64,000 bases of DNA from Neorhizobium petrolearium (lineage in GTDB: Bacteria > Pseudomonadota > Alphaproteobacteria > Rhizobiales > Rhizobiaceae): NCBI RefSeq assembly GCF_017873175.1, contig NZ_JAGGJW010000001.1, positions 186,001 through 250,000 on the forward strand. The letters run 5' to 3'. Shown here piece by piece: positions 3,308 through 52,306 of this stretch (positions are counted from its first letter, which is position 1; each line of letters opens with the position of its first letter). The notes beneath the pieces were generated by a model, which did not search any database, had not been told where the DNA came from, and was given only the letters and a program-made list of their open reading frames with translations. The translations under genes were made by a program, and so were the position numbers.

Positions 3308-4552
3308 TTATTGCCCGACCGCCGTGGTGACTGTGTTGCCCACGGCATTGCCGAAGCGATCGACCTGTTCGTTGTAGGTGCGCCGTGTTGCCGGATCGAA
3401 GATCGCGATCGGGGCGCTGACCGCAACGCTTGCGGCGCTTCCGACTGTCTGGGCCGTGCCGACCGCAACGGCGCCGAGCCGCTCTCCGAGACCCACATTG
3501 GAATCGGTCACTGTCTGTCCGGCGATCAGCCGGTTGCCGATCAGTTTCACGACTTCCGGGCTTTCGGCGAATTTCCCGTGGTTCAGACGATCACCCGTCT
3601 TGAGCGCCGTGAGGTCGAGAACGACGATGCCGGCTTTTTCGAACTCGCTGCGATAGGGTTCGACGGTCGGGTCCACCTGGCCGAGCCGGTCGATATTGCC
3701 GGAAATACGGCGTGACAGGCTGAGCGCCCGGTCATCGCGGGAAACGAACAGGGTGAAATGCGGCCGCTTCTCGCCGATCTCGGCAAGCTGGCGGCTGAAG
3801 ACATCGACGTCGAGATCCGGGGAGGCGAGGATGACGTTCTGAATCTTCGGCGCCACGCGGCCGTCGCGGATTGCCATCTGCCGGAGCGCTTCGACGGTCA
3901 GCCAGGAACCCATGGAATGAGCCATGATGGTGACTTCGCCGACGCTCGGCTCCTGGGACAACCGGCGCAACATCTCCTCGAGCGCCTCGCGGGAATAGTT
4001 CGTGCTTTCCTTGTCGTAGTTGTAGGCGAAAATGCTGCCGCGCGACGGCCATGTGAAAAGCACCGGCGCCACATCCGCCTTCGAGTCGTGAACGATCTGG
4101 GCGAAGCGATAGACTGCATCCTCGTAGCGATTGTTGAAGCCATGCACGAAGACCAGCACGCGCCGGCTTTTCGGCAGATGCTGCTTCAGCCAGCCCTGGG
4201 CGCTTTGCGGCGCCATCGGCGTGACGGAGATGGTTGCAAATTCCTTGGCCGGATTGGCGGGCAGTTTCTTCGGCCACTGGACCTGACCGATCTCGCGGGC
4301 GCTGTCTGGCGGGACGGAGACGGCGATCTCGGTGACCTGCAGATCCTTGCCGCGTTCACCGGAAAAAAGCATGCCCGGCGTTTCAGAAGGGCGTCGCGTG
4401 GTCGCGACCAGTACATCGACCTTCGATGTCTGGGCAGCCCGCGCTTCAGTTGGAACGAGCACGCCTTCGGGCCGTCCGGCGCAGCCGGAAAGAACGGCCA
4501 GGACTGTGATGACAACGATCAGGCGAAACGAAAACCCGGTGCGGCTCTGCAA
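3308..4552 (-). CDS. Alpha/beta-hydrolase lipoprotein (DUF900 family esterase)
   Basis: A 414-residue predicted lipoprotein. A short basic N-terminus and hydrophobic segment end in the lipobox LSGC with Cys24 as acylation site, so the protein is probably anchored in a membrane facing the periplasm. The hydrolase core shows the oxyanion segment FVHGFNNRYEDAVYRF, the nucleophile elbow AHSMGSW and a late LNHGKF that could hold the catalytic His. This is the DUF900 group of esterase/lipase-like proteins, whose substrate is not known. The gene follows pgi by about 85 bases on the same strand but shows no functional tie to it. A promoter probably lies in the 140 bases downstream of fadD. Confidence 0.82.
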   Translation of the reverse strand: MQSRTGFSFRLIVVITVLAVLSGCAGRPEGVLVPTEARAAQTSKVDVLVATTRRPSETPGMLFSGERGKDLQVTEIAVSVPPDSAREIGQVQWPKKLPANPAKEFATISVTPMAPQSAQGWLKQHLPKSRRVLVFVHGFNNRYEDAVYRFAQIVHDSKADVAPVLFTWPSRGSIFAYNYDKESTNYSREALEEMLRRLSQEPSVGEVTIMAHSMGSWLTVEALRQMAIRDGRVAPKIQNVILASPDLDVDVFSRQLAEIGEKRPHFTLFVSRDDRALSLSRRISGNIDRLGQVDPTVEPYRSEFEKAGIVVLDLTALKTGDRLNHGKFAESPEVVKLIGNRLIAGQTVTDSNVGLGERLGAVAVGTAQTVGSAASVAVSAPIAIFDPATRRTYNEQVDRFGNAVGNTVTTAVGQ

Positions 4553-33596: not shown

Positions 33597-33670
33597 GCGG
33601 GTGTAGCTCAATGGTAGAGCAGCAGCTTCCCAAGCTGAATACGAGGGTTCGATTCCCTTCACCCGCTCCA
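33597..33670 (+). tRNA. tRNA-Gly(CCC), prophage attachment site
   Basis: A 74-base tRNA with acceptor stem GCGGGTG/CACCCGC, D-arm GCTCAATGGTAGAGC, anticodon loop TTCCCAA (anticodon CCC, Gly), T-arm with GGTTCGATTCC and an encoded TCCA 3' end. The tRNA is intact. A tyrosine integrase gene ends 81 bases further on and reads toward it, so the 3' half of this tRNA is the likely attL core. Confidence 0.96.
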
Positions 33671-33750: not shown

Positions 33751-34812
33751 TCATCGGCCGTTCTTTTTGGCATCATCCGCACGGCGCTGGCGGGCATCGT
33801 TGATCTGCCGAATCGCTTCGCGCGTGGCCGCTCCCCGCGCGACATAGCGCTTGATGATCTTCTCGACGTATTCCTCTTCCCAGCCCATGATTTCCGCGAT
33901 CACCCGGATAGACAGGCCGGCGATATAGAATTTCGTCGCTGCCGTGCCGCGCAGGTCGTGGAAGTGGAGATCGCGCTCCTGCATGTTCGCTTCGACCTTC
34001 GCCGTCCAGAACGAACTTGCGAGGCCGTCGTTCGTCCATGGCTTCTTGCGGCTGTTCGTCAGGATGACCGGCGAGCGCTTCGGGATCCTGCCCAGGAGGC
34101 TCCTGAGATCATCGTAAAGCGGAACGACGGCTTCCCGCCGGTGCTTGCTCTTGCCCGTCGTGATGACGATCGCATCCTCGCCGACGTGAGACCATGACAG
34201 ACGCACGAGATCTCCGACGCGCAAGCCGGTGTGAGCCGCGAGGTCGACGGCGAAACAGACTTCATCCGAGGCGACTGCCTTGATCTGGGCTATATCGTCA
34301 TCGGTCCAGACGATCTCGGCGCGGGAGCTGGTGTAGAGGTGCTTGATGCCCTCGCAAGGGTTGGAAGCAATCTTTCCCAGAGGGTCGACCGCGTGCGAAA
34401 GGATGCGGGACAAGACCTGCATGCCGAGGTCGGCAGTGCGGGGCGTTTCGGCGTACTGGTTTCGCCAGCGCCGGATAGACGGCCTGATCTTCTCATGGTG
34501 ATTGAATGTCGCCGTCCGCATCTGGCCGAACTGCGCGGAGATCCTGTCGAGCCAGGGCGACCAGACGCGCCTGGTGGAATCGGAAAGTTTCGGAAATTCC
34601 GTCTTCTTGTAATGATTGATGACGGATTGGAGTTTTGTGTCGTCGACGGCGTGCCGGATCTCGATGGCTTCGTTGTAGGAGGCCATGAACTCGGCCGTGC
34701 CCGGAACGCCTTCCAGCCGCGGGCCGCCTCGCCATGCATAATAATAGACGAAGATGCGGCCGTTCTTCCTGATCTTGACGGTGTGGATGCCTTTTAACTC
34801 GACTTGGACCAC
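33751..34812 (-). CDS. Phage tyrosine-type integrase
   Basis: A 353-residue tyrosine recombinase that integrates and excises the phage at tRNA-Gly. An N-terminal arm-binding segment (VKIRKNGRIFVYYYAWRGG) and a SAM-like core-binding domain precede the catalytic domain. The first Arg is in HTGLRVGDLVRL, the His-x-x-Arg in HFHDLRGTAATK, and the nucleophile Tyr probably in KRYVARG. The second His position is a Trp (EIMGWEEEY), as in many family members. The gene overlaps the 67-residue upstream gene by 19 bases. Its position and orientation beside the tRNA fit attL. Confidence 0.94.
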   Translation of the reverse strand: MVQVELKGIHTVKIRKNGRIFVYYYAWRGGPRLEGVPGTAEFMASYNEAIEIRHAVDDTKLQSVINHYKKTEFPKLSDSTRRVWSPWLDRISAQFGQMRTATFNHHEKIRPSIRRWRNQYAETPRTADLGMQVLSRILSHAVDPLGKIASNPCEGIKHLYTSSRAEIVWTDDDIAQIKAVASDEVCFAVDLAAHTGLRVGDLVRLSWSHVGEDAIVITTGKSKHRREAVVPLYDDLRSLLGRIPKRSPVILTNSRKKPWTNDGLASSFWTAKVEANMQERDLHFHDLRGTAATKFYIAGLSIRVIAEIMGWEEEYVEKIIKRYVARGAATREAIRQINDARQRRADDAKKNGR

Positions 34813-42197: not shown

Positions 42198-44318
42198 ATG
42201 AACATGCATGCGGGAACGCTGTTCGGCGATGCCAGCACCGACGATCTGTTGCGGGACTATGGCAGCTTGCCGCCGATGATCGTCGACAGTTTCGCGGGCG
42301 GCGGCGGGGCATCGACGGGGATCGAGATGGCGCTTGGCCGATCTCCTGACATTGCCGTGAACCATAACCCGGCGGCGCTGGCGCTGCATGCCGCCAACCA
42401 CCCGCAGACGCTGCACCTTTCCGAAAACGTCTGGAAGGTCGATCCGCTCGACTATCTCGCCGGGCGGCATATTGGACTGATGCACTTCTCCCCTGATTGC
42501 AAACACTTCTCGAAGGCCAAGGGCGGAAAGCCGGTGGAACGGAATATCCGCGATCTTTGCTGGATCATCCCCGGCTGGGTCGAGCGCATTCAGAAAAGCG
42601 GCGGCAAGATCGACGTCATCACTATGGAGAATGTCGAGGAGTTCAAGGATTACGGGCCGCTGATCGAGACGGATCGCGGCCTGATGCCCGATCCGGAGCG
42701 CAAGGGCGAGACCTTCCAGAAGTGGTGCAAGCAGCTTCGGCGGCTCGGCGGCAGGATCGAGCATCGCGAACTGCGTGCGTGCGATTACGGCGCGCCGACG
42801 ATCCGCAAGCGGTTGTTCATGGTGATCCGCTTCGACGGGAAAAAGATCGTCTGGCCCGAACCGACGCACGGCGCGCCGGACGATCCCGACGTGATCGCCG
42901 GGCGGAAACAACCGTGGCGGACAGCGGCCGAGATCATCGACTGGTCACTGCCATGCCCATCGATCTTCGATTCGAGTGAGGAGATCTCCGCGAAACACGG
43001 GTTGCGCGCCGTTCGCCCGCTCGCCGATAACACCATGGCCCGCGTGGCGCGCGGCATGAAGCGATATGTGCTGGATGCGGAAAGGCCCTTCATCGTCAAC
43101 CTGACGCACGGAGGCCGGTTGGAAAGCGCGGATGAGCCGTTCAACACCATTACCGCGGCGCATCGTGGCGAGAAGGCGGTAATCGCTCCCGCCATCACTC
43201 GGTTCAATACGGGCGCGACCGGCCAAGATCTGCGCGAGCCGCTCTCGACGATCACGGCGAACAGTTACATCAAGAAACCTGGCGGCGCTGCCCCCCTCGG
43301 GTTGATCGCACCGCACCTGATGACGATGCGCAATTCTGGCAAGCCCTTCAACGGGGCAGACGAGCCGACGCATACGATCACCGCAGGCGGCGCGGGCTTG
43401 TCGGTCGTGGCTCCGGTGCTGACCCATGCACAGCAGGGCGGCGCAGTGCGCAGTGTCGAGCAGCCGCATCACACGATCACGGCCAGCAAGAAAGACCAGA
43501 ACTCGGTCATCATACCGACGCTTGTCGGCTGCGGCGGACGGGCCGGACAGAGCCGTCCGCGTGGCGGTGACGAGCCTCTTGCGACCATGACCGCCAAGGC
43601 GGATGTGTGCTCTGCCGTGGCTTTCATCGCGCAGCATAACAACGACAGCAGGCGTGATGGAGGCGTCAATCCGGGCCGTGCGGCAGAAGAGCCGGTATCG
43701 ACCGTGACGGCGACGGGCGCACAGCAGGGCGTCATCAGCGCCTTCGTGTCCCGCCAGTTCGGCGCATCCGTGGGGCATGCCGCCGATGAGCCTTCCGCAA
43801 CGGTGACGGCTGGCGTCAACAAATCGGCGCTCGTCGCACCTTACATGCAGAAATACTACGGCACCGGAGACGGTTCGCGGCATGACGAGCCATGTCATAC
43901 CGTGACGGTCAACGACCGTTTCGGACATGTCGAAGCCGGCATTTCCGTTCCTCCATTCACGCCCGACCAGATTGCCCGCGCGCGCCAGGTGGCCGATTTC
44001 CTGCGCTCTCACGGCTTCTGGGACGAGCGGGAGATCGTGACGCTCAATATCTGCGGCGAGACCTATGTCATCGTCGATATCGGCATGCGCATGCTCACGC
44101 CGCGCGAATTGTTCAATGCGCAAGGCTTCCCGCCGGATTACGTCATCGACGGCGTCTGGGCGGAGCCATCCATCGGCCACAATGGAGGGCCGATCTGGGT
44201 GCCGTTCCCGAAATCCGTTCAGGTGAGTTGTTGCGGAAATTCCGTCTCTCCCTATCCCTATGCCGCGCTCGTCGCGGCCAATTGCGGGCACCTCGCCGTG
44301 CAGCGTGAGGCGGCATGA
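42198..44318 (+). CDS. C5-cytosine DNA methyltransferase with internal repeats
   Basis: A 706-residue C5-cytosine methyltransferase. Motif I is DSFAGGGGASTGIE (SAM binding). Motif IV has the catalytic Cys101 in MHFSPDCKHFSKAKGG, so PDC replaces the usual PPC. Motif VI is MENVEEF and motif X is CCGNSVSPYPYAALV near the end. Between residues ~312 and ~575, where the target-recognition region should be, eight copies of an E-P-x-x-T-x-T-A unit spaced 34-42 residues apart are inserted. No restriction enzyme is adjacent, so this is an orphan phage enzyme, probably protecting phage DNA. GAGAGGGG precedes the ATG. Confidence 0.9.
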   Translation: MNMHAGTLFGDASTDDLLRDYGSLPPMIVDSFAGGGGASTGIEMALGRSPDIAVNHNPAALALHAANHPQTLHLSENVWKVDPLDYLAGRHIGLMHFSPDCKHFSKAKGGKPVERNIRDLCWIIPGWVERIQKSGGKIDVITMENVEEFKDYGPLIETDRGLMPDPERKGETFQKWCKQLRRLGGRIEHRELRACDYGAPTIRKRLFMVIRFDGKKIVWPEPTHGAPDDPDVIAGRKQPWRTAAEIIDWSLPCPSIFDSSEEISAKHGLRAVRPLADNTMARVARGMKRYVLDAERPFIVNLTHGGRLESADEPFNTITAAHRGEKAVIAPAITRFNTGATGQDLREPLSTITANSYIKKPGGAAPLGLIAPHLMTMRNSGKPFNGADEPTHTITAGGAGLSVVAPVLTHAQQGGAVRSVEQPHHTITASKKDQNSVIIPTLVGCGGRAGQSRPRGGDEPLATMTAKADVCSAVAFIAQHNNDSRRDGGVNPGRAAEEPVSTVTATGAQQGVISAFVSRQFGASVGHAADEPSATVTAGVNKSALVAPYMQKYYGTGDGSRHDEPCHTVTVNDRFGHVEAGISVPPFTPDQIARARQVADFLRSHGFWDEREIVTLNICGETYVIVDIGMRMLTPRELFNAQGFPPDYVIDGVWAEPSIGHNGGPIWVPFPKSVQVSCCGNSVSPYPYAALVAANCGHLAVQREAA
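43131..43923 (+). repeat. Eight EPxxTITA-type repeats coded within the cytosine methyltransferase
   Basis: The protein repeats begin at residues ~312, 346, 388, 421, 458, 497, 530 and 563. Their cores are DEPFNTITA, REPLSTITA, DEPTHTITA, EQPHHTITA, DEPLATMTA, EEPVSTVTA, DEPSATVTA and DEPCHTVTV. Each is followed by a hydrophobic strand ending in a V-x-P-type turn. The DNA is diverged, so the repeats are old or under selection at protein level. Confidence 0.85.
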
Positions 44319-46876: not shown

Positions 46877-47515
46877 ATGGGACGGCGAAAGGATGACCCG
46901 CTGCTGCAGGCGGCAAAAGGGTTCCCCGGGCGCCGGAAAAAGGCGGTCGAGAAGGAAATCGAGCACGCTGCGGAGGCTGCCGCCGCCATGCAGGCGACGC
47001 CGGACGATCCGTTTCCGCTTCCGGAACTGTTCACCAAGGCGCCGACCTATTGGGCGCTGGCGATCAAAGTCTGGAAGGAACAGTCGGAAGTGCTCAGAGC
47101 AGCAGGCCGGCGCCGCCCAGGCTATCGCCACGCCCTTGCCCGCTACTGCATCTGGACGCAATTCTATGTTTCGGCAGCCGACCAACTCCGGCGCGATCTT
47201 CCCAGAGGCGGGGCCTCGATCAAGGTGAAGAAGGGCGACGGCGAAACAGTCATCCGGCAACATCCGAATATCGATTTCATGGCACGGTGCGAAACGGCGC
47301 TGCGCCTCCTCGATGCCGAGTTCGGTTTCACACCGCTCCGCGACCAGGACATCGTCCGCGTCGAATCCTTCAACCGAGCGCAAGGCAAATTGCCTCTCGG
47401 CGGCACCCATCCCGACCAATCTCACAGATCGCCATCGCCCGGCGAGCCGACCGAAGACCCGATGGATCTCATGAATGGGGCAGATAGCCCACCGCCAGGT
47501 GTCCGACCAAACTGA
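46877..47515 (+). CDS. Terminase small subunit (P27 family)
   Basis: A 212-residue small terminase of the P27 type, which recognises phage DNA for packaging. It begins with a basic part (MGRRKDDPLLQAAKGFPGRR) and has the family core of LPELFTKAPTYWALAIKVWK and ARYCIWTQFYVSAADQLR. The C-terminus is Pro-rich. It overlaps the large subunit gene by 41 bases. The 120 bases before it contain GGGACCGGTGAGAAC near the start, with no obvious promoter. Confidence 0.88.
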   Translation: MGRRKDDPLLQAAKGFPGRRKKAVEKEIEHAAEAAAAMQATPDDPFPLPELFTKAPTYWALAIKVWKEQSEVLRAAGRRRPGYRHALARYCIWTQFYVSAADQLRRDLPRGGASIKVKKGDGETVIRQHPNIDFMARCETALRLLDAEFGFTPLRDQDIVRVESFNRAQGKLPLGGTHPDQSHRSPSPGEPTEDPMDLMNGADSPPPGVRPN

Positions 47516-49253
47516 GGAGGTGAACACGGCGGCACCGCTGCCGGCATGGCTCGCCGATGTGGCGGACGATCCGGCCTATGAGTGGGCACTATCAGGTTGG
47601 AACCGGGCCGCTGCGGTGCCGGGGGCATGGTTCGACCATGCCAAGGCCGACAAGGTAGTTGCCGCGTGGCCGCGCATCTTCCGGCTGACGAATGACCGGT
47701 TCAAGGGCATCCCCTTCCGGCTGGTCAAGTGGCAGGAAATCACGGTTCGCCTGCTGGTCGGCTGGAAAAAGCCGATCGAGGTCATCGATCCGGCCACGCA
47801 CAAACCGGCGATCGAGCATGTCAGGGTTTTCCGTCGGCTCGATCTCTGGATCCCGCGCAAGAACGGGAAATCGGAATTCCTTGCGGCGCTCGCCGTCCTG
47901 TTCTTCGTGCTGGAGAAGATCCATGGCGCCGAGGCTTACGTCTTCGGCCGCAATGAGGATCAGGGCCGCGTTCCGTTCGGCAAGATGCAGGACATCATCC
48001 GAGAGGCGGATGGCCTGATGGAGGATGCGAAGGGAAACGAGAGGATTTCCCTTCACGACAAGTCGATTTTCCTCAGGGAAACGACGTCGCTCTGCCAGCT
48101 CCTCACCGGAGCACCGGACGGAAAACACGGACGTTCGCCGACCGTCATCGTCGGCGACGAGATCCACGAATGGAAGACCCGCGATCTCGCTGACACTCTG
48201 CGGCAAGGAACTGGCGCCAGGCTGCAGCCGATCGAGCTCTACGCCTCGACATCCGGTCGGAAGCAGAACCGTACCGGCTTCGAATGGTTCGAAGAGTCCA
48301 TAGCGATCATGCGTGGCGAGATCGACGATCCCGCCACGCTGGTCGTCTTCTTCGGTATCGACGAGGATGACGACTGGACCGACGAAACGGTCTGGAGAAA
48401 AGCAAATCCAAGCCTCGGCCTGACACCGACACTCGATTACCTTCGTACCGAGTTCAAGAAAGCCAAGGGGCGGCCGGCACAGGAAGCAATCTTCCAGTGC
48501 TACCATCTCAATCGCTGGGTGGACCAGCTCTCCGGCTGGATACCGCGCACCAAATGGGCGGCCTGCACGATCGATGCGAAGTCCTGGCCGGCGCTTTGGA
48601 ACCAGCACAAGGGGCGAAAGGCATTTCTCGCTTGCGACGTATCCTCGACCAGGGACCTTACCGCGCTGGTCGTCGTCATTCCTCCGGACAATAGCTGTGA
48701 ACGCTGGGTGATCATCCCGCTCTTCTGGGTGCCGGAAGCAACGCTTGATGAGCGGGCGGAGCAGGATCGGCGGGTGGACTGGAAAAAGTGGGTGTCCAGC
48801 GGTGCGCTGCGCACCACGCCCGGCGATTCGGTGGACCAGTCGTTTGTGCAGGAGGCCATCAAGGATGCCTGCGCGCATTTCGACGTTCAGGCGTTCGGCT
48901 TCGACCCCTGGAACGCGCGTAAATTGGCCGGCGATCTGCAGCATGACGGCATGGATGCGGAATTGCAGGTGGAGATGCGGCAGGGGCATCAGACGCTTTC
49001 AGGCCCGACCAAGGAACTTGAGCGCCTCGTCTTCGCCGGCAAGGTCGAGCACGGCGGACATCCGGTTCTGGCGTGGATGTTCGGACACTGCACGGTGCGC
49101 TTCGACGCGAACCTGAACTATGTGCCGGACAAGAAGAACTCGCTCGACAAGATCGACGGCGCCGTAGCGTCAGTCATGGGCGTCGGGCTGGCGATGGGTG
49201 GCGAGGAAGACGGCATGGACGGCTACTTCAAAAGTCTGGCGGGGGCAGCGTGA
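47475..49253 (+). CDS. Terminase large subunit
   Basis: A 592-residue terminase ATPase-nuclease. The N-terminal ATPase part shows RLDLWIPRKNGKSEFLAAL, the Walker A-like site, and VIVGDEIHEWKTRD, the Walker B Asp-Glu. The C-terminal RNase H-like nuclease shows LACDVSSTRDLTALVVV and a late FDPWNARKLAGDL with acidic residues. It cuts the DNA and pumps it into the head. The start at 47475 overlaps terS; GTG starts at 47499 and 47520 are possible. The portal gene begins at its stop (GTGA). Confidence 0.95.
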   Translation: MGQIAHRQVSDQTEEVNTAAPLPAWLADVADDPAYEWALSGWNRAAAVPGAWFDHAKADKVVAAWPRIFRLTNDRFKGIPFRLVKWQEITVRLLVGWKKPIEVIDPATHKPAIEHVRVFRRLDLWIPRKNGKSEFLAALAVLFFVLEKIHGAEAYVFGRNEDQGRVPFGKMQDIIREADGLMEDAKGNERISLHDKSIFLRETTSLCQLLTGAPDGKHGRSPTVIVGDEIHEWKTRDLADTLRQGTGARLQPIELYASTSGRKQNRTGFEWFEESIAIMRGEIDDPATLVVFFGIDEDDDWTDETVWRKANPSLGLTPTLDYLRTEFKKAKGRPAQEAIFQCYHLNRWVDQLSGWIPRTKWAACTIDAKSWPALWNQHKGRKAFLACDVSSTRDLTALVVVIPPDNSCERWVIIPLFWVPEATLDERAEQDRRVDWKKWVSSGALRTTPGDSVDQSFVQEAIKDACAHFDVQAFGFDPWNARKLAGDLQHDGMDAELQVEMRQGHQTLSGPTKELERLVFAGKVEHGGHPVLAWMFGHCTVRFDANLNYVPDKKNSLDKIDGAVASVMGVGLAMGGEEDGMDGYFKSLAGAA

Positions 49254-50488
49254 ACATTCTTCGCAAAATGGCGAACCTCATCATTCGTCCTCTGACGCTT
49301 CGGCAGACGGATGTCTGGTATCCAGACGGTTTGAAGGGGGATTCCGGTGAGGTTGTCAGCGGAGAGACGGTGCTTGGCCTGTCAGCGGTCTGGGCGTGCG
49401 TCAATCTGCTGGCCGGGACGATCGGTAGTCTACCATTGATGGTTTACCGCACCAATGCGTCCGGAGAACGGGAAGTTGCCAAAGCGCACGCGCTATACCG
49501 CATCCTTCACGATAGCCCGAACTATGACCAGACGGCCGTAGACTTCTGGGAGTTCCTCAGCGCCTCACTGGAGTTGTGGGGTAATGCATATGCGAAGATC
49601 GAGCGCAATGGCGATCGGGTCATTGCGCTCCGGCCGCTGACCCCGAGTCTCATGTCAGTACGGCGATTGCCAACCGGGCCGCTTGAATATCGTTGGACGC
49701 AGGACGGAAAATCCTATGTCGAGACGGATAGCGTCGTTCTTCATATCCGAGGCTTTGGCGGCGATCCGCTTGGTGGGATGTCGACCCTGCAATTTGGTCG
49801 AAACGCTTTTGGTCTGGCGCGCGCCATCGATCGATCCGCGGGTGCTACGTTCAGAAACGGTCTTAGGCCGTCGTTCCAGATCGTTTTCGAAAAGTGGCTA
49901 ACGAAGGAACAGCGCGCACTGGCCGAGACCGAACTTGCCGAAAAGTATCTCGGTGCGGTCAATTCCGGCCGTCCTTATATCGCAGAAGGTGGCGCGAAGC
50001 TGGAACAGCTTTCGCTAAATCCTGAAGACGCACAGATGCTGCAGTCGCGCGGCTTTTCCGTCGAAGAGATTTGCAGGTTCTTCGGTGTCCCTCCGTTCAT
50101 GATTGGCCATACCGAGAAATCGACGAGCTGGGGTACCGGTATTGAGCAACAAACGCTTGGATTTCAGAAGTTCACGTTGCGGCGTCGCCTCAAACGTATC
50201 GAGCAGGCGCTTGAAAAGCAGCTTCTCACGCCCTCCGATCGCGCAAACGGCATCACGATCGAATTCAACCTGGAAGGCCTGTTGCGGGCAGATAGCCAAG
50301 GTCGGGCGCGGTTTTACCAGGCCATGACCGGAATCGGCGCGATGACCATCAACGAGGTACGCGCGCTCGAAAACTTGCCAAGGGTCGACGGTGGCGACGT
50401 GCCGCGCATGCAGATGCAGAATGTGCCGATCGTCGAGATCGACCGTGACGCATTGCGGGAAATAATCGCCGAGAACGGGGACAGCTGA
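49250..50488 (+). CDS. HK97-family portal protein
   Basis: A 412-residue HK97-family portal, the ring through which DNA enters the head. Family features include AVWACVNLLAGTIGSLPLMV, PNYDQTAVDFWEFLSASLEL and YGNAYAKIERN-like WGNAYAKIERNGDR, with a C-terminal FFGVPPFMIGHTEKSTSWG and IEQQTLGFQ. I use the GTG at 49250, overlapping the terminase stop; ATG 49268 is an alternative. The prohead protease gene begins one base after its stop. The gene looks complete. Confidence 0.95.
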   Translation: MNILRKMANLIIRPLTLRQTDVWYPDGLKGDSGEVVSGETVLGLSAVWACVNLLAGTIGSLPLMVYRTNASGEREVAKAHALYRILHDSPNYDQTAVDFWEFLSASLELWGNAYAKIERNGDRVIALRPLTPSLMSVRRLPTGPLEYRWTQDGKSYVETDSVVLHIRGFGGDPLGGMSTLQFGRNAFGLARAIDRSAGATFRNGLRPSFQIVFEKWLTKEQRALAETELAEKYLGAVNSGRPYIAEGGAKLEQLSLNPEDAQMLQSRGFSVEEICRFFGVPPFMIGHTEKSTSWGTGIEQQTLGFQKFTLRRRLKRIEQALEKQLLTPSDRANGITIEFNLEGLLRADSQGRARFYQAMTGIGAMTINEVRALENLPRVDGGDVPRMQMQNVPIVEIDRDALREIIAENGDS

Positions 50489-50489
50489 G

Positions 50490-51164
50490 ATGAAGACCAA
50501 AGGTTTCGAGCTGCAAGTCAAAGACCTGTCGGAAGAGGGCATCTTCGAAGGTTACGGGTCTGTGTTCAGTGTCCGTGACAGCTACAACGAAAGCGTTGAG
50601 CCTGGGGCATTCGTGGCCAGCCTTGCAAAACATCGTCGTGAAGGGACAATGCCACTGATGCTGTGGCAGCATGATCCATGGACGCCCATCGGCGTCTGGG
50701 AAGAGCTTGCCGAAGACGGAAAGGGATTGTGGGTCAAAGGGCGCCTCCTGTCCGGCGTCCAGAAGTCCGACGAGGTTCGCATCATGTTGAAGAACAAGGC
50801 GATCCGCGGGCTCTCCATCGGATATCGAGAGGTCGACACCAAGCCAGCCGAAAACGGCGGCCCGCGCAAGTTGGTTGAAGTCGACCTGCTGGAGGTGTCG
50901 ATCGTTTCATTCCCCGCCAATCGTCGGGCGAATGTGGAGACCGTCAAATCGGAGCGCATGGACGAATTCGCCCGCCGGCTGCGTGATGGCGACCCCATGC
51001 CCATCAAGGATTTCGAGGACATCCTGCGTGAGGCAGGGGTTCCGAAAAGCATGGCCGTTGCGATCGCCTCGCACGGCTATGCAAAGGCCATTCGGAGTGA
51101 TTCCGAGGGCGAGAAGACGAACGATCAGGCCCTGCGCTTCCTGCAGATGTTGAAGGCAGACTGA
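50490..51164 (+). CDS. HK97-family prohead protease
   Basis: A 224-residue S78-family head maturation protease that trims the capsid delta-domain during assembly. The likely catalytic residues are His61 in LWQHDPWTPIG, Ser109 in RGLSIGYRE and Glu135 in DLLEVSIVSFPANRRA, matching the HK97 order. It normally processes the major capsid protein encoded next; here the next gene is only a chimera with a capsid-like start (51196). The protease itself appears intact, so the capsid loss seems recent, or the protease still acts on a capsid from elsewhere. Confidence 0.94.
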   Translation: MKTKGFELQVKDLSEEGIFEGYGSVFSVRDSYNESVEPGAFVASLAKHRREGTMPLMLWQHDPWTPIGVWEELAEDGKGLWVKGRLLSGVQKSDEVRIMLKNKAIRGLSIGYREVDTKPAENGGPRKLVEVDLLEVSIVSFPANRRANVETVKSERMDEFARRLRDGDPMPIKDFEDILREAGVPKSMAVAIASHGYAKAIRSDSEGEKTNDQALRFLQMLKAD

Positions 51165-51195: not shown

Positions 51196-51984
51196 ATGAA
51201 AAACCATCGCTTCATTGCGGCGAGTGGCATCGCCATGCTCGTGGCGGGCATGAGCTATTCCCGCTTCGCGCCCCGCATTGTCTTCGACAAGCCGAACGAT
51301 CAGGGCGTCGACATCAATGTTCTCGCGACGCAGATCAAGACCGAGCACAAGCAGGCCGTCGATGCCGTCAAGGCGATCGCCGAAGAAGCGCTCGGCAAGG
51401 CAAAGTCTGGCGAGGAACTGGCCTCATCGCTCATGCGGCAATGCCGCATCACGATAGACGAAGGTGACGATGTAGCCCTCCCCGAAGTGACGGCGCTGCT
51501 GGAGGGCTATATCGGTGCAGCGGTAACCCATCTCGAAGGGTGGAACGGCACGTTGGGCGGCGTGGTCGTGATCGGCGAGCAGGTCTGGAAACAGGAGTTC
51601 GATGCGTTTTCGCAGTGCTTGAAGCTTCCTCTGTCGCCTGTCGCTTCGATCGAAAGCGTCACTTGGCGCAACAGCGCCGGGCAAATCTCGACGATTTCCG
51701 CTTCCGAATACACCCTCAAAACGGATGCGGCCGGCGTCAGCGCCTGCCGCTTCCGGAACAGTTACAGCTTTCCGTCCGATCTTTACGAGATCGCCTCGAT
51801 CGCCGTGACATACAAGGCTGGATATTCGCCCATTCCAACGGACATCAGGCAGGCTATCCTTCTGCTCGTCGGAGCCTGGTATGAAAACCGTGAGGAGACC
51901 GTGATCGGGGTTCCCGTCGCCTCTCTGCCCGTTTCAGCGGCGGTCGAAACACTGATTTTTCCTTATCGCCGGAACATCATCTGA
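51196..51984 (+). CDS. Chimeric gene: major-capsid N-terminus fused to head-tail connector
   Basis: A 262-residue open gene in the slot of the major capsid gene. Residues 1 to ~75 (MKNHRFIAASGIAMLVAGMS, then RIVFDKPNDQGVDI and a charged helix to KAKSGEEL) look like the start of an HK97-type capsid protein with its delta-domain. Residues ~80-262 (QCRITIDEGDDVALPEVTAL, then GAAVTHLEGW and ILLLVGAWYENREETV) are a gp6-like head-tail connector. The fold region of the capsid is absent. The join at about 51406-51435 is in frame. GGAAAGG precedes the ATG, and the head-closure gene begins two bases after the stop. The simplest reading is an in-frame deletion of ~1 kb. Assembly collapse is the alternative. 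Confidence 0.8.
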   Translation: MKNHRFIAASGIAMLVAGMSYSRFAPRIVFDKPNDQGVDINVLATQIKTEHKQAVDAVKAIAEEALGKAKSGEELASSLMRQCRITIDEGDDVALPEVTALLEGYIGAAVTHLEGWNGTLGGVVVIGEQVWKQEFDAFSQCLKLPLSPVASIESVTWRNSAGQISTISASEYTLKTDAAGVSACRFRNSYSFPSDLYEIASIAVTYKAGYSPIPTDIRQAILLLVGAWYENREETVIGVPVASLPVSAAVETLIFPYRRNII

Positions 51985-51985
51985 C

Positions 51986-52306
51986 ATGCGTGCCGGGAAG
52001 CTCGACAAGCGGTTGACGATCGTGCGGTTTGTGGAGACCGGCCGCGACGGGGCGAACCAGCCGATCTACGGATGGTCTGATGTCGCAACCTTATGGGCGC
52101 AGGCGCGGCCGGTGCGCGGCGAAGAGCGGTTCCAGGCGCAGCAGCTCGCCGGGACCGAAGTGATGACGTTTCATATCCGCTATCGTGCCGATCTGACTGT
52201 CAAGGATCGCATCCGCTTCAAGGGCAAGGAGTGGGACATCACCGCCGTGCGCGAGATCGGGCGCGGCGTGGTGAGCGAATTCGATTGCCAGGCGAGGGCA
52301 GAGTGA
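51986..52306 (+). CDS. Phage head closure / head-tail adaptor protein
   Basis: A 106-residue head-closure protein (SPP1 gp16/HK97 gp7-like). The family start MRAGKLDKRLTIVRFVETGR is followed by WSDVATLWAQARPVRGEE and the end FKGKEWDITAVREIGRG, the usual beta-barrel features. It closes the portal complex after packaging. The stop overlaps the next ATG by one base (TGATG). Normal length. Confidence 0.92.
   Translation: MRAGKLDKRLTIVRFVETGRDGANQPIYGWSDVATLWAQARPVRGEERFQAQQLAGTEVMTFHIRYRADLTVKDRIRFKGKEWDITAVREIGRGVVSEFDCQARAE

What the first reader, a model, noticed from the sequence alone, without database searches (positions are those of the whole stretch)
51196..51984. Capsid gene missing: in-frame chimera of major-capsid start and head-tail connector
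Between an intact prohead protease and an intact head-closure gene there should be a ~400-residue major capsid gene and a ~180-residue connector. Instead one open gene carries a capsid-like first ~75 residues, including the delta-domain start, joined in frame to a gp6-like connector (join near 51406-51435). No other capsid candidate is seen in 33.7-64.0 kb. The whole packaging set otherwise looks functional. This could be a deletion-locked prophage, one needing a helper capsid, or an assembly collapse.
Basis: partly seen in the sequence, partly recalled or inferred. Interest (0 to 1): 0.8.

Follow-up and report, generated by a model that had tools for sequence, protein, structure and literature searches.

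The report
Prophage missing its capsid gene
A complete-looking bacterial virus lying in a bacterial chromosome has lost almost all of its shell-protein gene in one deletion that welded the gene's start to the next structural gene, so it can probably no longer build heads; this is a clean example of an ordinary kind of prophage damage.

Summary
ORF 51196-51984 (262 codons) is an in-frame fusion: residues 1-79 are the start of an HK97-type major capsid protein, residues 80-262 a gp6-like head-tail connector without its first 20 residues. Of the 120 homologues listed (158 found), 67 match only the first piece, 53 only the second, none both. DNA similarity to three intact relatives stops at the same base, 51433. 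Against ten measurable relatives 1.37-1.84 kb is absent, not about 1 kb. The kept capsid part lies in the delta (scaffold) domain, so nothing of the mature shell remains. No PF05065 capsid was found in the 6.97 Mb assembly; other capsid families were not searched. The junction is single copy, which argues against repeat collapse, but no reads could be inspected. The rest of the 42 kb prophage (identical 47-bp att sites, terminase, portal, protease, neck, tail, endolysin) looks intact. Best reading: one deletion, possibly recent, made a head-defective prophage. If induced, it might release headless tails, a conceivable first step towards a tailocin, but nothing here shows that.

The parts
51196..51984 (+). 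chimeric ORF, 262 aa
51196..51432 (+). codons 1-79: N-terminal delta-domain part of an HK97-type major capsid protein
   Evidence: 92% to P0040 residues 1-79; the HK97 mature-shell match starts only at P0040 residue 157 and the PF05065 match at 163
51432..51434 (+). deletion junction (1-2 shared bases)
   Evidence: blastn to L032, L033, L034 ends at 51433; flanking bases of relatives read
51433..51981 (+). codons 80-262: gp6-like head-tail connector without its first 20 residues
   Evidence: PF05135 26.2 bits, cut-off 21.2; phrog_442 head-tail adaptor; 92% to P0001 residues 21-203
50490..51164 (+). prohead protease, intact
   Evidence: PF04586 E 3e-29
51986..52306 (+). head closure / head completion protein, intact
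   Evidence: PF05521 E 3e-21
47475..49253 (+). terminase large subunit
   Evidence: PF20441, PF03354; 85-88% to five relatives
49280..50488 (+). portal protein (start chosen by me; one search lists a longer frame from 49073)
   Evidence: PF04860 E 5e-101
33624..33670 (+). attL, the 3' end of tRNA-Gly (47 bp, repeated exactly at 76022-76068, beyond the window, in L067)
33751..34812 (-). integrase
   Evidence: phrog_1 E 5e-40

Best explanation
One illegitimate deletion of about 1.4-1.8 kb removed the major capsid gene from codon 80 on, whatever lay between, and the first 20 codons of the connector gene of an integrated HK97-type siphoprophage. It happened to leave an open fusion. The fusion keeps only scaffold (delta-domain) sequence of the capsid, so no shell can be built from it and the prophage should make no infectious particle by itself (inferred from what the families do). 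The adaptor part of the fusion is predicted to fold. Lysis and tail genes remain, so induction could still kill the cell and release tails without heads (inferred). It is a defective prophage, probably early in decay.
For: Clean two-part homology, 67/53/0 of 120 listed. Breakpoint at 51433 against three relatives. 22 of 26 related connector loci outside the window have a capsid upstream; 3 of the other 4 contigs end too soon and 1 (L048) is a distant relative with only 2.4 kb upstream, holding what look like fibre genes. No PF05065 in the own genome, and intact capsid P0040 hits only its residues 1-82, at this locus. Junction single copy: 1 full match, the other 32 at most 41 bp. Missing length modulo 3 varies among relatives (4, 5 and 1 of 10 with remainder 0, 1, 2), so the open frame needs no selection. 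Identical 47-bp att sites; 11 of 15 head-tail genes tested have near full-length counterparts in relatives. Model of the fusion: block means of pLDDT 84-97 over residues 81-240, with a helix 71-82 running across the join where the intact connector has helix 17-23.
Against: No reads: a mixed population or a misassembly is not excluded. The only second record found with this junction (IMGVR_UViG_2913319810_000002) is 100% identical over the 16,786 bp held and is probably the same assembly, so it is not independent. DNA of the closest intact pair (N. petrolearium) was not available, so exact length and exact microhomology are inferred. Capsid families other than PF05065 were not searched in the genome. 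Three tail-tip genes had no counterpart in the five relatives and the central fibre only a weak partial one, so their intactness is not shown. Headless tail release is untested.
Confidence: 0.85

Rival explanations
1. Assembly artefact: the capsid gene is present in the cell and was lost in the assembly.
For: Draft assembly of 64 contigs; no reads could be inspected.
Against: Relatives share only 1-2 bases at the join; the 271 bp around it are single copy; no contig carries the missing part; the fusion is in frame. The repeats listed in 50.9-52.1 kb have no copy on the join, apart from one 11-bp inverted arm.
Confidence: 0.1
2. Nascent F-type tailocin: loss of the capsid was selected because the host profits from headless tails, and the fusion still works as a neck adaptor.
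For: Tail, tail fibre and endolysin genes kept; adaptor part predicted to fold; a headless prophage-derived tailocin is known in Allorhizobium vitis (PMC10811719, passages), and removing capsid genes from four Salmonella prophages gave killing tail particles (PMC10670071, passages).
Against: Terminase, portal, protease, integrase and att sites all remain; no second strain with the deletion was found; no test of selection was possible.
Confidence: 0.1
3. Helper-dependent element: the prophage uses the capsid of another phage.
For: Relatives of the lost capsid, close to distant, occur in the family: 77 of 394 genomes searched, one of them the own genome with only this fragment.
Against: No PF05065 capsid in the own genome; other phage pieces found look like remnants; PHROG scans of the larger ORFs named no satellite-type hijacking gene, though no dedicated search was made.
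Confidence: 0.04
4. A functional capsid-connector fusion family, not a lesion.
For: Open frame, foldable adaptor part.
Against: 0 of 120 listed homologues have both parts; no mature-shell residues.
Confidence: 0.01

Closest known systems
Intact HK97-type siphoprophages (N. petrolearium proteins P0040/P0001; IMG/VR loci L029, L032, L033, whose hosts are not shown)
   Same: Order terminase, portal, protease, capsid start, connector, head closure, neck, tail tube in L029, L032, L033; large terminase 86-88% identical
   Different: They have a full capsid gene of about 430 aa between protease and connector
Rhizoviticin, F-type tailocin of Allorhizobium vitis (PMC10811719; passages seen)
   Same: Prophage-derived locus without a capsid, with tail and lysis genes
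   Different: Rhizoviticin lacks head-formation genes altogether and has an integrase remnant; here only the capsid (and the connector's start) is gone, and activity is unknown
Engineered capsid-deleted Salmonella prophages (PMC10670071; passages seen)
   Same: Capsid gene removed, rest of prophage kept
   Different: Deliberate deletion, tested for killing; here natural and untested
RcGTA adaptor Rcc01688 (PDB 6tba)
   Same: Sequence relative of the connector part (E 6e-10 with the profile of intact connectors)
   Different: Not fused to capsid sequence

Membership tests
HK97-type major capsid protein | PF05065 mature-shell domain | tested here: not met
   No PF05065 match in the 262-aa ORF; only the delta-domain part is present
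gp6-like head-tail connector | PF05135 / head-tail adaptor profile | tested here: met
   26.2 bits against cut-off 21.2; phrog_442 E 9e-21
gp6-like head-tail connector | complete N-terminus (strand 5-8 and helix 17-23 in the model of P0001) | tested here: not met
   First 20 residues absent; a helix of mixed origin (71-82) stands where helix 17-23 was, the native strand is lost
Defective (cryptic) prophage | integrated phage genome lacking an essential particle gene | tested here: met
   att sites and integrase present, capsid not found in the assembly
F-type tailocin | head genes (terminase, portal, protease, capsid) absent | tested here: not met
   Only the capsid is missing
F-type tailocin | headless tails that kill relatives | not testable with these tools
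   needs induction, microscopy and killing tests
Phage satellite (PICI type) | lacks its own full structural set and relies on a helper | tested here: not met
   Own portal, terminase, protease, neck and tail genes present; only the capsid is lacking

The most novel reading that the evidence does not exclude
The fusion keeps a working neck adaptor while the shell is gone, and the locus is caught at the first step of becoming an F-type tailocin of a probably rhizobial host: a full prophage turned into a headless-tail producer by one capsid deletion.
Probability: 0.1. Interest if true: 0.6.

Novelty: new member of a known kind. Interest (0 to 1): 0.25.

Why it matters
It is a clean single-event example of how a temperate phage becomes unable to leave its host while nearly everything else still looks whole. 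Gene-presence checks that score terminase, portal, protease and tail would call this prophage intact. If it releases tails, it would be a natural counterpart to engineered capsid-deletion tailocins.

Tried and rejected
Considered and rejected: residues 1-79 as the normal start of a connector family (none of the 53 connectors among the 120 listed homologues matches them); a second capsid elsewhere in the prophage (PHROG and Pfam scans of its larger ORFs, not of every ORF, gave none; the 432-aa ORF at L067:5012-6310 is TPR-like). Some PHROG families named "major head protein" do match the protease gene; the matches cover its protease region (for example residues 20-157), so I read them as families in which protease and capsid are fused, not as a capsid here. 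A second capsid in the genome was sought only with PF05065 and P0040. P0057 (270 aa) as another fusion: it falls in the C-only group. My own capsid profile missed 10 loci with room for a capsid; all 10 carry PF05065. Paper searches showed no report of this prophage among the 15, 15, 10 and 10 papers listed (of 95, 150, 14 and 19 found); beyond listings I saw only passages of three papers. The fold search of the model could not be run. No test of the deletion's age or of relaxed selection was made: the nearest intact DNA held is about 76-78% identical. The host was not identified by name; a rhizobial host is inferred from protein hits.

Full report
What is there. ORF 51196-51984 (+) is open for 262 codons; 31 bases lie between the protease stop codon and its start, and one base between its stop and the head-closure gene. 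Pfam gives PF05135 (gp6-like connector) for its C-terminal part, 26.2 bits against a cut-off of 21.2, and nothing above a cut-off for residues 1-79. PHROGs gives head-tail adaptor families for its later part and only weak, unnamed families (E 0.037 or worse) for the first 80 residues. A protein search found 158 homologues, 120 listed. BLASTP of the two pieces against these 120 gave 67 that match only residues 1-79, 53 that match only 80-262, and none that match both. The N-only proteins are 401-442 aa, apart from one of 279 aa (P0075). In the annotated phage collection 35 records match, none over 80% of the ORF, and all 20 listed matches begin at residue 81 or later. Among 57 genomes of the same genus only the own one has the fusion; the other 12 that match the whole ORF do so with one part or the other per match.

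Where the join is. blastn of the window against L032, L033 and L034 (IMG/VR prophages with capsid genes) ends at base 51433 in all three. Reading the flanks shows 1 or 2 bases shared between the capsid side and the connector side, depending on which relative stands in for the lost sequence. In ten relatives where it could be measured (of 11 tried; L034 could not be measured) the stretch between capsid codon 80 and connector codon 21 is 1368-1836 bp. Its length modulo 3 varies (4, 5 and 1 of 10 with remainder 0, 1 and 2), so an in-frame result looks like chance. In L032 the stretch also holds a 96-aa ORF.

What was lost. P0040 is a sequence relative of HK97 gp5: the chain of entry 1ohg, which I recall as the mature shell protein, aligns from P0040 residue 157 on, and PF05065 from residue 163. 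The retained residues 1-79 therefore lie wholly in the part that HK97-type phages use as scaffold and then cut off (established knowledge of HK97). No mature-shell residue remains.

Is it usual? Of 26 related connector loci outside the window (23, 3), 22 carry a capsid upstream: 12 found with a profile built here, three of them weakly (L024, L045, L047), and 10 by Pfam PF05065. L030 is cut by the contig end and shows only the capsid's end, and L034's capsid is split between two frames. The other four are L035, L043 and L046, whose contigs end too close, and L048, a distant relative with 2.4 kb upstream that holds, by my reading of its ORFs, fibre-like genes. L022/L036 and L024/L047 look like the same loci counted twice.

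Could the capsid be elsewhere? PF05065 has no match in the 6.97 Mb assembly, and P0040 at E <= 1 finds only its residues 1-82 at this locus. Capsid families unrelated to these were not searched. Other phage pieces in the genome are a portal fragment near a terminase-like ORF on contig C4 and a 248-aa terminase piece on C6. The 271 bp around the join have one full match in the assembly; the other 32 matches are at most 41 bp. With 1-2 shared bases at the join this makes a repeat collapse unlikely. Reads were not available. The same junction occurs in one IMG/VR record, 100% identical over the 16,786 bp held, probably the same assembly.

The rest of the prophage. It lies between a 47-bp exact repeat at the 3' end of tRNA-Gly (33624-33670) and 76022-76068 in window-based coordinates, about 42.4 kb. 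It has an integrase, CI-like repressor, CII-like activator, replication initiator and antiterminator, small and large terminase, portal, protease, head closure, neck, tail tube, tape measure, tail tip and fibre genes, and an endolysin. Of 15 head-tail genes compared with five relatives, 11 have near full-length counterparts; the central fibre has only weak partial ones and three tail-tip genes none at 1e-5.

How it most likely works. AlphaFold2 models predict that the adaptor part of the fusion still folds (block means of pLDDT 84-97 over residues 81-240; most of the first 32 residues are below 50): helix 71-82 crosses the join where intact P0001 has helix 17-23, while the connector's first strand (5-8) is lost. 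Whether this adaptor works is unknown. Without a shell protein the prophage should be unable to make virions; induction could still lyse the cell and release tails (inference). Loss of head genes is proposed to have led to a rhizobial tailocin, rhizoviticin (PMC10811719, passages), and engineered removal of capsid genes gave killing tail particles from Salmonella prophages (PMC10670071, passages). Genes for particle production, capsid included, are preferentially lost in incomplete prophages (PMC7744054, passages). The plain reading, an ordinary defective prophage made by one deletion, needs nothing more.

Verdict. Interest is modest unless headless tails with activity are shown.

Noticed in passing
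L034:3190-4535: Another relative has its capsid match split into two frames near 4299 (residues 1-370 and 356-434 of P0040), on a 6.5 kb contig: a second capsid lesion or a sequencing error.
   Followed up: no
L028:3697-8546: Mosaic head module: same terminase group and connector type, but a different portal (31% identical), by eye a different protease gene, and a PF05065 capsid that P0040 and my capsid profile did not detect.
   Followed up: partly
L073 (own genome, contig C4, about 343-348 kb) and L072 (contig C6, about 198-199 kb): Remnants of other prophages: a portal fragment with a terminase-like ORF, tail and endolysin genes; and a 248-aa terminase piece.
   Followed up: partly
window 42198-44318: 706-aa C5 cytosine methyltransferase-like protein with a long stretch between its N- and C-terminal matches, as if 300-400 residues were inserted.
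   Followed up: partly
L067:9860-10864 (minus strand, about 73660-74664 in window-based coordinates): SRAP-family gene (PF02586) inside the prophage near its right end.
   Followed up: no
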